Shown in pieces: positions 26,395 through 29,373 of a stretch of 64,000 bases of DNA (position 1 is its first letter; the number at the start of each line of letters is the position of its first letter). The DNA is from Gracilibacillus oryzae. Lineage in GTDB: Bacteria > Bacillota > Bacilli > Bacillales > Amphibacillaceae. The notes under the pieces are model-generated. The model saw nothing but the letters and a program-made list of their open reading frames with translations, searched no databases and was not told the DNA's origin. A program made the position numbers and the translations under genes. The stretch is from assembly GCF_009498735.1 (NCBI RefSeq), contig NZ_ML762424.1, forward strand, positions 353,422-417,421, read 5' to 3'.

Positions 26395-28332
26395 ATGAAA
26401 CTAGGTGCCGCTTATATACGAACAAGTGTAGATAAAACTGGAAACAAAATTAGTCCACAACAGCAATATAATGCAATTAAGGGCTTTGCAGATAACAACT
26501 CTATTACACTTGTTAATGAGGGTTATTACGATGAAGATGTTTCTAGTGAAAACTTTGAAGACCGTCCTGCTTTCCAACAACTGTTAGAAGATATTGATAA
26601 GTACAATATTAAGTACATTATATTTTATGATAGCAGTCGTTACACTCGTGTGGTTAAGGATTTTATAAATATGACCACCAACTTACAGGAAAAAGGCGTT
26701 AAAATCTTCTTAGCAAATAGTGGCAAGGAAGTAAATCTCCTTGACTGGAACAATAACACAATGATGGATTTAATCCAGTCAATTTTTGACCAAAATATGC
26801 GTGAAGATGTGAGAAAGAAGGTGAAAGCCAATATAAATGAACTTGTAGATATGGGTTGCTATATAGGAGGGCCCATTCCGATTGGGCTTTCAATAGAAGA
26901 AGTAGAAATTAATGAAAGAAAAAGAAAAAGGTATTGTTTAGGGGATACAAAAGAAATTGAGTTGGTTAAAAATATTTTTAAATGGTATTTAGAAGATGAT
27001 AAAAGCCTAAGTGAAATAGTACGTTTAGCAGATGAGCAATATGCCGATATTTTAAATGAAAATGATATAAAAAAATACCGTAAAAATGGGACTGAGAACC
27101 ATTATAACGGAGTGTACTTTAACAGTAAGAAAATCTGGAGAATACTTAGAAATCCATCTTACACAGGTTATATGGTAAAGAACAGAAGAGAAAGAATAAC
27201 TAAAAAGAAAAGAAAAGATAATCCGATGGAAGAATGGTATTGGAGTAAAAATTTTAGAGAAGGAAAAGAACCTGATTTCACTCCAATTGTTTCATTTGAA
27301 ACATGGGAGAAGGTTCAACAAAAAATGCAAGCAAGAAAGCCTAAACAAGAGCACTATGATCCTCAAAGAGAAAATAGCCCCTATCTATTATCTAGCATGT
27401 TAAAGTGTAATGAATGCGGAAGGGCTATGAATGGTACTTATACAATGGGAAAAACAAAAAAAGATGGTACACGCTCAAAGTTTTATTACTATAAATGTGA
27501 TGTAGCTATAAAAAGTAAAGGTCAAAACTGTAGTAATAAGAAAATGGTACGTTGTGAAAAGGTTGATAATATAGTTCTTGACATATTTGGTAATGCAACT
27601 GTACTGCTTAATGTATTAAAGACGTTATATAATTATCAAAAGGATGCATTAGAAAACAATACTGCATATCTCGAAAAAATTAATGAACTTGAAAACAAAA
27701 TAAAAAAAGCGGAAATTGCAGAGCAGAATGTTATATCAAGTATTGGCGAGGTAACCGATCCAGATTTTAAGATGAAATTAATAAGTCAAGGTGAGGAATT
27801 ATCAAAACAAATTAGACAATTAAGAAAGCAGAAAAATGAATTAAATGATGAACAAGAAGAACAAAATATGAAAAAAGTTGAATTGCAGGAAGTCGTAGGG
27901 TTATTACTTCAGCCTGAAACCCTTTATAAAAATCAAACAACTAAGCAAGTAAGAAATTATTTAAAACATGTGATAGAATCAATTGAGTATAAGCCAAATA
28001 AGGAAATTGTAATGAATTTAAAGTTTGCGAAGAAGTCAATGAGCATCGCCACCGTACCTACTGAAAAGTTTAAAGAATTAAAACAAGAAATAAAAACGGA
28101 AAAAGGAAGAGTTAGTAAAAAGAAAGTAAAAGAACAAAATCAAATAGTCCTATTTAGTCTTTTAGCTACCTTATGGGATAAAGATCCCAACAAAATTGGA
28201 AAAGATGAGGCTAGTATAATAAACTTTATAATAGAGGCTTTAGATGAATTTAATGGGACGAATGAGGAATTTGCATACCCAAAGTATAGTGGTACGGTGG
28301 CACACGGGGGTTCATTCGTCCCTTCTGTCTGA
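26395..28332 (+). CDS. Large serine recombinase (integrase)
   Basis: A 645-residue large serine recombinase. The catalytic domain has the nucleophile Ser11 in AYIRTS and the Arg-rich region DSSRYTRVVKDF. The recombinase domain (about 165-300) and a zinc ribbon (Cys338, Cys341, Cys368, Cys379) follow, then a long coiled coil (about 415-490). It ends about 50 bases before trpS. The last 15 or so residues (SGTVAHGGSFVPSV) are encoded by DNA that looks like the trpS T-box leader. Such enzymes catalyse site-specific integration and, with a directionality factor, excision. A GGAGG site precedes the ATG. Confidence 0.93.
   Translation: MKLGAAYIRTSVDKTGNKISPQQQYNAIKGFADNNSITLVNEGYYDEDVSSENFEDRPAFQQLLEDIDKYNIKYIIFYDSSRYTRVVKDFINMTTNLQEKGVKIFLANSGKEVNLLDWNNNTMMDLIQSIFDQNMREDVRKKVKANINELVDMGCYIGGPIPIGLSIEEVEINERKRKRYCLGDTKEIELVKNIFKWYLEDDKSLSEIVRLADEQYADILNENDIKKYRKNGTENHYNGVYFNSKKIWRILRNPSYTGYMVKNRRERITKKKRKDNPMEEWYWSKNFREGKEPDFTPIVSFETWEKVQQKMQARKPKQEHYDPQRENSPYLLSSMLKCNECGRAMNGTYTMGKTKKDGTRSKFYYYKCDVAIKSKGQNCSNKKMVRCEKVDNIVLDIFGNATVLLNVLKTLYNYQKDALENNTAYLEKINELENKIKKAEIAEQNVISSIGEVTDPDFKMKLISQGEELSKQIRQLRKQKNELNDEQEEQNMKKVELQEVVGLLLQPETLYKNQTTKQVRNYLKHVIESIEYKPNKEIVMNLKFAKKSMSIATVPTEKFKELKQEIKTEKGRVSKKKVKEQNQIVLFSLLATLWDKDPNKIGKDEASIINFIIEALDEFNGTNEEFAYPKYSGTVAHGGSFVPSV
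28285..28310 (+). other. Probable attachment-site junction inside the trpS T-box
   Basis: At 28295-28310 the sequence changes from recombinase coding DNA into CGGTGGCACACGGGGG, close to the conserved T-box motif AGGGTGGNACCGCG. Upstream of it the sequence shows none of the usual T-box leader features. The crossover core is probably within GGTGG or GGTAC, but a 2-base core cannot be fixed from one end. The matching end should carry the 5' half of the leader. Confidence 0.65.
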
Positions 28333-28352
28333 AGGGAGAATGGGCCTTTTTT
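28295..28352 (+). promoter_or_regulatory. Truncated T-box leader: 3' T-box motif and terminator
   Basis: A T-box-like GGTGGCAC motif is followed by an intrinsic terminator. The 5' arm is CATTC, a bulged G, then TCCCTTC (28313-28325); the loop is TGTCT; the 3' arm is GAAGGGAGAATG (28331-28342), followed by a T run. In an intact leader the TCCCTTC arm would alternatively pair with an upstream GAAGGG next to the T-box motif; that sequence is missing here. The recombinase stop codon (28330-28332) lies inside the hairpin. Known: trpS is T-box controlled in B. subtilis. Confidence 0.72.
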
Positions 28353-28380
28353 GTATTTAATAATTTTATGAGGTGAGAAG

Positions 28381-29373
28381 ATGAAAAAGATTTTTTCAGG
28401 AATCCAGCCAAGTGGAACATTAACATTAGGAAATTATTTAGGAGCAATGAAACATTTCGTGACATTACAAGAGGAAAATGAGTGTTATTTCTGTGTGGTT
28501 GATGAACATGCCATCACCGTACCGCAGGATCGTCTGGAACTGCGTCAGAATATCAAATCCCTTGCAGCATTGTATATAGCATCAGGTATCGACCCGGATA
28601 AGTCGGTATTATTTATCCAATCAGAAGTGCCGGCACATACACAGCTTGGCTGGATGCTGCAAACAGTAAGCTATATCGGGGAATTAGAACGAATGACGCA
28701 ATTTAAAGATAAATCAAAAGGAAAAGAAGCAGTATCAGCAGGTTTACTGACATATCCACCACTGATGGCTGCAGATATCCTTTTATATCAAACAGATATT
28801 GTGCCAGTCGGAGAAGATCAAAAACAGCACTTGGAATTAACTCGTGATTTAGCTCAACGATTCAATAATCGATATAATGATATTTTTACCATCCCTGAAA
28901 TCAGCATTCCTAAGGTTGGTGCACGGATCATGTCATTGCAGGAACCAACGAAGAAAATGAGTAAATCTGATGAAAATCAGAAAGCTTCAATCTTTATGCT
29001 TGATACAGAAAAGCAAATTGAGAAAAAAATTAAGAGTGCAGTAACGGATTCTGAAGGGATTGTGAAGTTTGACAAAGAGAACAAGCCAGGAATCAGTAAT
29101 TTACTGACAATTCATGCTAGTTGTACTGGAGAAAGTATTGAACAACTGGAAGCAAAATATGAAGGAAAAGGTTATGGAGACTTCAAGCAGGACACTGCTG
29201 ATGCAGTAATCAGTACACTAAGACCAATTCAGCAAAAGTATCAGGAATTGATGGAATCGGAAAAACTTGATCAATTACTTGACCAAGGAGCCGAAAAAGC
29301 AAACTTTGTTGCTAATAAAATGATTGTTAAAGCGAAAAAAGCAATGGGGCTTGGACGCGTTAAGAAGAAGTAA
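28381..29373 (+). CDS. trpS: Tryptophanyl-tRNA synthetase
   Basis: A 330-residue class I aminoacyl-tRNA synthetase. The HIGH-like motif is PSGTLTLGNYLGA near residues 10-22 and the KMSKS motif is at 192-196 (KMSKSDENQKA). It attaches Trp to tRNA-Trp and is normally essential. A GAGGTGAG site precedes the ATG. Its leader appears truncated by the recombinase element (28295-28352), so no native promoter or complete T-box is visible. Transcription may depend on read-through from the element. Confidence 0.96.
   Translation: MKKIFSGIQPSGTLTLGNYLGAMKHFVTLQEENECYFCVVDEHAITVPQDRLELRQNIKSLAALYIASGIDPDKSVLFIQSEVPAHTQLGWMLQTVSYIGELERMTQFKDKSKGKEAVSAGLLTYPPLMAADILLYQTDIVPVGEDQKQHLELTRDLAQRFNNRYNDIFTIPEISIPKVGARIMSLQEPTKKMSKSDENQKASIFMLDTEKQIEKKIKSAVTDSEGIVKFDKENKPGISNLLTIHASCTGESIEQLEAKYEGKGYGDFKQDTADAVISTLRPIQQKYQELMESEKLDQLLDQGAEKANFVANKMIVKAKKAMGLGRVKKK

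What the first reader, a model, noticed from the sequence alone, without database searches (positions are those of the whole stretch)
26395..28381. Serine recombinase element integrated into the trpS T-box leader
Seen: the recombinase stop codon lies inside a terminator hairpin directly before trpS, and the last codons are encoded by a T-box-like GGTGGCAC...CGTCCCTT stretch. Established: B. subtilis trpS is controlled by a T-box whose antiterminator pairs an upstream GGG-rich strand with the TCCCTT strand of the terminator. Inference: the attachment site of this island is the T-box itself, and the 5' half of the leader is at the far end of the element. I am not aware of a described element that uses a T-box leader as its attachment site.
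Basis: partly seen in the sequence, partly recalled or inferred. Interest (0 to 1): 0.85.

Follow-up and report, generated by a model that had tools for sequence, protein, structure and literature searches.

The report
Mobile island splits trpS RNA switch
A 67-kilobase island carrying predicted metal-resistance genes sits inside the T-box leader, the predicted RNA switch, of the cell's only trpS gene, with one half of the leader left at each end, and it likely keeps that gene expressed from a promoter hidden inside the island's own recombinase gene.

Summary
A T-box 5' half (RF00230, 80.3 bits, below the gathering score of 93) lies 66,875 bp left of trpS on the same strand. The joined flanks align with the intact trpS T-box of a same-genus genome (105.5 bits). 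The sequences place the crossover at one GG dinucleotide, the dyad centre of the antiterminator. In the family, 6 of 159 genomes carry the recombinase, 6 of 6 directly before trpS; 3 of 3 readable left ends show T-box 5' halves; trpS is single-copy in all 6 hosts.

Beyond the finding: the recombinase gene has two long stretches without synonymous variation. One (27946-28026) survives as a decayed remnant before trpS in 6 genomes with no T-box there, at three places on the trpS tree; I read it as a promoter that keeps trpS transcribed and is kept after the element dies. The other (28255-28332) holds the att site and an 11-nt exact complement of the terminator's 5' arm, a possible substitute antiterminator; folding of the longer leader does not favour it. 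Ten paper searches found no described T-box attachment site. There are no expression data.

The parts
26395..28332 (+). large serine recombinase gene (645 aa) at the right end of the island; its last codons are host-derived
   Evidence: Pfam Resolvase, Recombinase, Zn_ribbon_recom; homologues in 6 of 159 family genomes, 6 of 6 before trpS
27946..28026 (+). nucleotide-constrained segment inside the recombinase gene; candidate trpS promoter (extended -10: TG 27971-27972, TAGAAT 27974-27979)
   Evidence: longest run without synonymous change, 25 eligible codons, 0 of 20000 permutations; remnant before trpS in 6 genomes. No consensus -35/-10 pair found
28048..28058 (+). GCCACCGTACC, exact complement of the element's att arm 28291-28301; role unknown
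   Evidence: 10 or 11 nt in 6 of 6 element copies
28255..28265 (+). GGGACGAATGA, exact complement of the terminator 5' arm 28312-28322; candidate substitute antiterminator strand
   Evidence: 10 or 11 nt in 6 of 6 element copies; 7 of 20000 dinucleotide shuffles reach 11 nt, 1180 of 50000 synonymous recodings do; not favoured in the longer leader
28288..28308 (+). element half of attR (AGTGGTACGGTGGCACACGGG), includes GGTGGCAC resembling the T-box
   Evidence: differs from the empty site left of the GG; 28288-28305 is the same in all 6 element copies
28309..28310 (+). GG overlap dinucleotide: inferred crossover point of attR
   Evidence: only dinucleotide consistent with attL, attR and the empty site; inference
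28311..28352 (+). host 3' half of the trpS T-box: antiterminator 3' strand TTCATTCGTCCCTT and the terminator with its T-run
   Evidence: identical 14 nt in 9 of 9 same-genus T-box leaders of trpS; fold
28381..29373 (+). trpS (tryptophanyl-tRNA synthetase), the only copy found in this genome
   Evidence: Pfam tRNA-synt_1b; one match in G000
1..28310 (.). right-hand part of the 66,875-bp island; its left end, with the T-box 5' half, is outside the window at C1:314677-314856 (L021:4678-4857)

Best explanation
A 66.9-kb island with a serine recombinase gene at its right end lies between the two halves of the trpS T-box leader, was likely inserted by that recombinase at a GG dinucleotide in the loop of the predicted antiterminator hairpin, and likely keeps trpS transcribed from a promoter inside the recombinase gene, helped by a predicted substitute antiterminator strand. 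Shown by sequence: the split leader, the empty site in a relative, the repeated use of this one site, the single trpS copy, the nucleotide constraint and the remnants before trpS. Inferred: that the recombinase did it at GG; that the DNA dyad which encodes the RNA antiterminator stem is what the recombinase reads; that the constrained segment is a promoter; that trpS thereby loses tRNA sensing; that the remnants are kept because they drive trpS. Weakest step: the antiterminator role of 28255-28265. My odds by step: T-box attachment site 0.97, promoter in the recombinase gene 0.7, substitute antiterminator 0.4.
For: Site: T-box 5' half 66.9 kb away on the same strand; joined flanks align with the intact leader of G037 (T-box 105.5 bits); 6 of 6 family copies before trpS; 3 of 3 readable left ends with a T-box 5' half (own, G096, G021); a further recombinase protein, P0001, ends GGSFVP...NGLFLL as if read through a trpS T-box 3' half (DNA not seen). 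Mobility: recombinase genes 99.8% identical at DNA level in Oceanobacillus bengalensis and Ornithinibacillus californiensis, whose trpS genes sit on long separate branches. Specificity: CGCGGTTCATTCG is in 9 of 9 same-genus trpS T-boxes and in none of the 13 distinct other T-box cores that my pattern found in 20 T-box loci of this genome. Promoter: longest synonymous-change-free run at 27946-28026 (pairwise 4 of 283 there against 145 to 386 per thousand in 17 of the 20 other 30-codon bins except the last three); the same segment is the decayed remnant before trpS in 6 genomes without a trpS T-box, and 12 of 12 DNA hits with E <= 2.1e-5 lie at trpS while 0 of the 18 weaker ones examined do. trpS single-copy in 6 of 6 hosts. 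Antiterminator strand: 11-nt exact complement, kept in 6 of 6.
Against: No expression data. The scan for -35/-10 pairs found none on the + strand of 27800-28420; the candidate has an extended -10 but a poor -35. In G069, not used in the count because its gene is partial, one base of the segment differs. The permutation ignores tree structure, and a third run of 13 codons (28114-28152) has no role that I know. In the leader from the proposed start, the nested fold does not form the antiterminator (mean pair probability 0.00 in 6 of 6) because 28048-28058 pairs with 28291-28301; as a pseudoknot it is 0.6 to 0.8 kcal/mol short in five and 4.7 in one before the terminator's 3' arm is made, and 8.9 to 16.4 short afterwards (with an assumed penalty of 9.6). 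Given the protein sequence, an 11-nt complement arises in 1180 of 50000 synonymous recodings, so it is not rare. Left ends of 3 of the 6 hosts could not be read (contig ends).
Confidence: 0.62

Rival explanations
1. The insertion is as described, but the island has no dedicated rescue: trpS is reached by transcription of the recombinase gene, and ribosomes that translate the recombinase up to its stop in the terminator loop keep the terminator hairpin from forming.
For: The recombinase frame ends in the hairpin in this window; in O. californiensis the frame stays open right into trpS.
Against: It does not explain the synonymous-change-free run at 27946-28026 nor why that same piece alone is left before trpS in 6 genomes. 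Recombinase genes are usually kept quiet (general knowledge).
Confidence: 0.18
2. The conserved segment and the two inverted repeats are DNA-level sites, for the recombinase, its directionality factor or a repressor, not a promoter and antiterminator.
For: The repeats copy the outer parts of both att halves, the element arm 28291-28301 and the host arm 28312-28322, and nothing on the RNA side was shown; the nested fold does not form the second one.
Against: A site for element proteins would have no reason to persist before trpS in lineages that lost the element, the T-box and the terminator.
Confidence: 0.17
3. The 6 remnants are an old trpS promoter that the recombinase gene picked up, rather than debris of the element.
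For: The segment is always next to trpS, in remnants and in elements alike.
Against: 9 of 9 same-genus trpS leaders with an intact T-box lack it in the comparison; the G019 remnant continues to match the recombinase gene over 92 nt, with frame breaks; a 36%-identical recombinase from Paenibacillus has a similar protein stretch there (by eye).
Confidence: 0.05
4. The T-box half at the left end belongs to another gene and its place is coincidence.
For: T-boxes are common: 23 matches in this genome.
Against: The half aligns with the trpS leader of G037, has the same left neighbours (DUF3899, oppA), and breaks exactly where the empty site does; the same is seen in G096 and G021.
Confidence: 0.01

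Closest known systems
Large serine recombinases of phages and islands (phiC31, Bxb1, TP901-1; recalled), including the large serine recombinase of the Vibrio PLE1 island (PMC6002521, abstract in a search listing)
   Same: Resolvase, Recombinase and zinc-ribbon domains; unequal, imperfectly dyad-symmetric attB and attP around a dinucleotide
   Different: The target is the antiterminator of a tRNA-sensing leader of an essential gene, and the recombinase gene appears to carry replacement control sequences for that gene
Islands and prophages that use tRNA genes as attachment sites and rebuild them (recalled)
   Same: They use a conserved, symmetric RNA-coding target and must not destroy an essential function
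   Different: Here the target RNA is not rebuilt: attR lacks the T-box 5' half, and control of trpS is likely replaced rather than restored
T-box leader (RF00230)
   Same: Intact in relatives without the element; both halves recognisable around the island
   Different: Split by 66.9 kb of foreign DNA, so the tRNA-binding half can no longer act on trpS in cis
Integration-dependent switching of phage genes, where attP lies inside a gene (recalled)
   Same: The crossover lies inside the recombinase reading frame, so integration changes the protein's last residues
   Different: The changed gene is the recombinase itself; any effect on its activity is untested

Membership tests
Large serine recombinase | N-terminal resolvase domain, recombinase domain and zinc ribbon | tested here: met
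   Pfam PF00239, PF07508, PF13408 above cut-off
Large serine recombinase | attB and attP recombine at a shared 2-bp overlap giving attL and attR | tested here: met
   attL, attR and empty site fit a single GG overlap; by sequence only
Large serine recombinase | catalyses integration in a purified or cellular assay | not testable with these tools
   no bench work
T-box leader (RF00230) | empty site scores above Rfam's gathering score | tested here: met
   G037 leader 105.5 bits against 93
T-box leader (RF00230) | either half in this genome scores above the gathering score | tested here: not met
   left half 80.3 bits; right half not listed; expected for a split leader. G096 left end 97.1 (met), G021 left end 90.9 (not met)
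T-box leader (RF00230) | UGG specifier for tRNA-Trp | tested here: inconclusive
   GGAATTGG or GAATTTGG conserved in the aligned leaders; specifier loop not modelled separately
Integrative conjugative element or prophage | conjugation or phage structural genes | not tested
   Pfam was run on 9 island proteins only, chosen for cargo; none of those is a conjugation or phage structural protein

The most novel reading that the evidence does not exclude
The island carries a built-in replacement leader for the essential gene it breaks: a promoter and an antiterminator strand hidden in the 3' end of its recombinase gene. It turns trpS from a tRNA-sensing gene into one run by a mobile element, and at least three host lineages have kept the element's promoter as their trpS promoter after the element itself decayed.
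Probability: 0.5. Interest if true: 0.88.

Novelty: new variant of a known kind. Interest (0 to 1): 0.76.

Why it matters
Mobile elements are known to use tRNA genes as safe harbours. A riboswitch-like leader of an essential synthetase is a different sort of harbour: conserved and dyad-symmetric at DNA level because the RNA must fold, but lethal to break unless expression is replaced. If right, it shows an element that brings the replacement along inside a coding sequence, and gives a route by which T-box control is lost in evolution and an element-derived promoter is kept. It makes testable why closely related species differ in having a T-box on trpS.

Tried and rejected
Rfam on the window alone shows no T-box. 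Viral contigs hold no close relative of the recombinase nor the att arm; in plasmids and phages every recombinase match is below 60% identity (117 and 179 records), and the 3' end as DNA has no match there. A phylum sample (1 of 398, only this genome) and an order sample (1 of 397, only this genome) gave no further recombinase at E <= 1e-40; those samples did not draw the other five carriers. An overlapping gene as the cause of the constrained segment: every other frame has stops inside it in the 4 genes compared, except one reverse frame in this genome only, which is closed in the other three. An RNA antiterminator as the sure reading: weakened by the long-leader folds, so I give it 0.4. The idea that the left arm holds the native recombinase tail: 28 codons after the crossover codon stay open with the stop at the same place in 3 of 3, but changes are mostly non-synonymous (7 to 10 against 1 to 3), so I leave it open. 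One search missed five remnants and G069 through a too narrow pattern; one search repeats it. Rows dropped: O. californiensis (99.8% identical to O. bengalensis) and G069 (partial); 13 of 43 hit rows gave no locus and were not examined.

Papers: ten searches; of the hits I saw passages only of PMC10620731, PMC5644110, PMC6822371, PMC5313534, PMC7988955 and PMC6511857; none concerns an element inserted in a T-box. The rest I saw as listings. Subscription papers are not held.

Full report
1. What is there. The window's recombinase gene (26395-28332; Pfam Resolvase, Recombinase and zinc ribbon) ends inside a predicted terminator hairpin (28306-28349), 48 nt before trpS (28381-29373). The window is C1:353422-417421 of a 4.63-Mb genome in 53 contigs. 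A T-box match on the + strand at C1:314677-314872 (80.3 bits, gathering score 93) lies beside oppA-like genes and a DUF3899 gene, with no synthetase behind it. trpS occurs once in the genome.

2. The empty site. Of 17 same-genus genomes including this one, 9 hold a T-box core within 420 nt before trpS, and all 9 read CGCGGTTCATTCGTCCCTT. The nearest by TrpS (G037, 96%) has oppB-oppA-DUF3899-T-box-trpS, T-box 105.5 bits. Joining the left flank through ...AGGGTGGCACCGCGG to the right flank from TTCATTCGTCCCTT... gives a leader that aligns with it throughout. Left end...CACCGCGG|GGCATGTG; right end...CACACGGG|GGTTCATTCG; empty site...CACCGCGGTTCATTCG. Only the GG (L021:4856-4857; window 28309-28310) can be shared by all three, so the island is 66,875 bp. 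GG is the exact centre between AAGGG (14 nt to the left) and CCCTT (14 nt to the right), the two strands of the antiterminator's first helix: the crossover lies in the antiterminator loop. The element's own ends form an imperfect dyad (AGTGGTACGGTGGCACACGGG against TGTGGTTTCGTGACACATGCC, 13 of 21 by eye). The 13 distinct other T-box cores that my pattern found in 20 T-box loci of this genome differ right after CGCG(G), which explains why only trpS is hit.

3. Recurrence. The recombinase is found at E <= 1e-30 in 6 of 159 family genomes; in 6 of 6 trpS follows directly and the att arm and T-box 3' half read the same but for one base in Cerasibacillus terrae and the ends. Four are named by the scan of genome contigs: Oceanobacillus bengalensis, Ornithinibacillus californiensis, Ornithinibacillus contaminans, Cerasibacillus terrae. 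Left ends could be read in three hosts, all with a T-box 5' half: this genome, G096 (97.1 bits) and G021 (90.9 bits); the islands measure 66.9, 66.2 and 32.1 kb. In G094 the contig ends first; G064 and G069 lie on short contigs. Recombinase genes of O. bengalensis and O. californiensis are 99.8% identical while their trpS genes are on long separate branches, so the element moves. trpS is single in the five other hosts too. Of 58 island ORFs of 80 aa or more (recombinase not counted), 40 have a tblastn match in the G096 island and 13 in the G021 island (counted from its table). Cargo looked at by Pfam includes two heavy-metal P-type ATPases, a mercuric-reductase-like protein, a MerR regulator, a cation efflux protein and a ZIP transporter.

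4. How trpS survives. After insertion trpS has the terminator but no T-box 5' half. Two stretches of the recombinase gene show no synonymous change among four gene copies: codons 518-544 (27946-28026; 25 eligible codons) and 621-646 (28255-28332; 19 eligible codons), the longest and second longest of the gene (509 eligible codons, 233 varied; 0 of 20000 permutations reach 25, mean 9.3). A third run of 13 (28114-28152) is unexplained. The first stretch is also what is left before trpS in genomes without element and without T-box there: G033, G031, G028, G035, G024 (same genus) and G019 (another genus). In the family search with this DNA, the 12 best hits (E <= 2.1e-5) are the 6 elements and these 6, all at trpS; of 31 weaker rows I could examine 18, none at trpS. 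No T-box was found near these trpS genes: for five at E <= 0.01 in about 1.5 kb and in the longer stretches at the gathering score; for G019 only at the gathering score. On the trpS tree the six fall in three places: one clade of four (support 0.999), G024, and G019 (deep nodes are weak). The remnants keep TGnTA(G/A)A-like letters, an extended -10 in the sense strand, 59 to 228 nt before trpS. I read the stretch as a promoter. Against it, a -35/-10 scan finds nothing on this strand. Two same-genus genomes, G025 and G026, have neither T-box nor remnant.

5. The second stretch. It contains the att site, which alone could explain part of its constancy, and 28255-28265 GGGACGAATGA, an exact complement of the terminator's 5' arm 28312-28322. 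Over the last 103 nt this pairing is the best structure before the terminator's 3' arm exists in 6 of 6 copies; with the 3' arm the terminator or a terminator-bearing fold is best in 5 of 6. From the proposed start, however, it is absent in the nested ensemble in 6 of 6, because a second exact repeat (28048-28058 with 28291-28301) competes. As a pseudoknot it is near-equal before the 3' arm in five copies, 4.7 kcal/mol worse in C. terrae, and clearly worse afterwards. Chance: 7 of 20000 dinucleotide shuffles but 1180 of 50000 synonymous recodings reach 11 nt. So a substitute antiterminator is possible, not shown; both repeats could instead be recombinase sites.

6. Verdict. The attachment site in a T-box is settled by sequence. 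That the element supplies the trpS promoter is the best-supported mechanism. The antiterminator is a bold addition. In ten searches of the open-access library no such att site was found; this is not proof that none is in print.

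Noticed in passing
L031 (Ornithinibacillus californiensis), recombinase end to trpS start, 5912-6008: The recombinase reading frame runs without a stop through the terminator into trpS, an open frame of 1015 codons.
   Followed up: partly
L021:4856-4945: Right of attL, 28 codons after the crossover codon stay open in the recombinase frame, with the stop at the same codon in 3 of 3 islands; integration may replace the recombinase's own tail by host-encoded residues.
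   Followed up: partly
window 28048-28058 and 28291-28301: Exact inverted copy of the element's att arm 232 nt upstream inside the recombinase gene, 10 or 11 nt in 6 of 6 copies; role unknown.
   Followed up: partly
L021:9311-10024: Two neighbouring 114-aa ORFs that begin like the resolvase domain of the recombinase (AVGYIKV.., AVGYVSV..), seen by eye.
   Followed up: no
L022:78-941: A second, tyrosine-type recombinase (PF00589) inside the island, with matches in the islands of G096 and G021.
   Followed up: no
L057 (G025) and L058 (G026): Two same-genus trpS genes have neither a T-box nor the recombinase remnant before them, so T-box loss has more than one route.
   Followed up: no
L030 (G069), about codon 594 of the recombinase: The recombinase copy of G069 has an internal stop, so that element may be stranded.
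   Followed up: no
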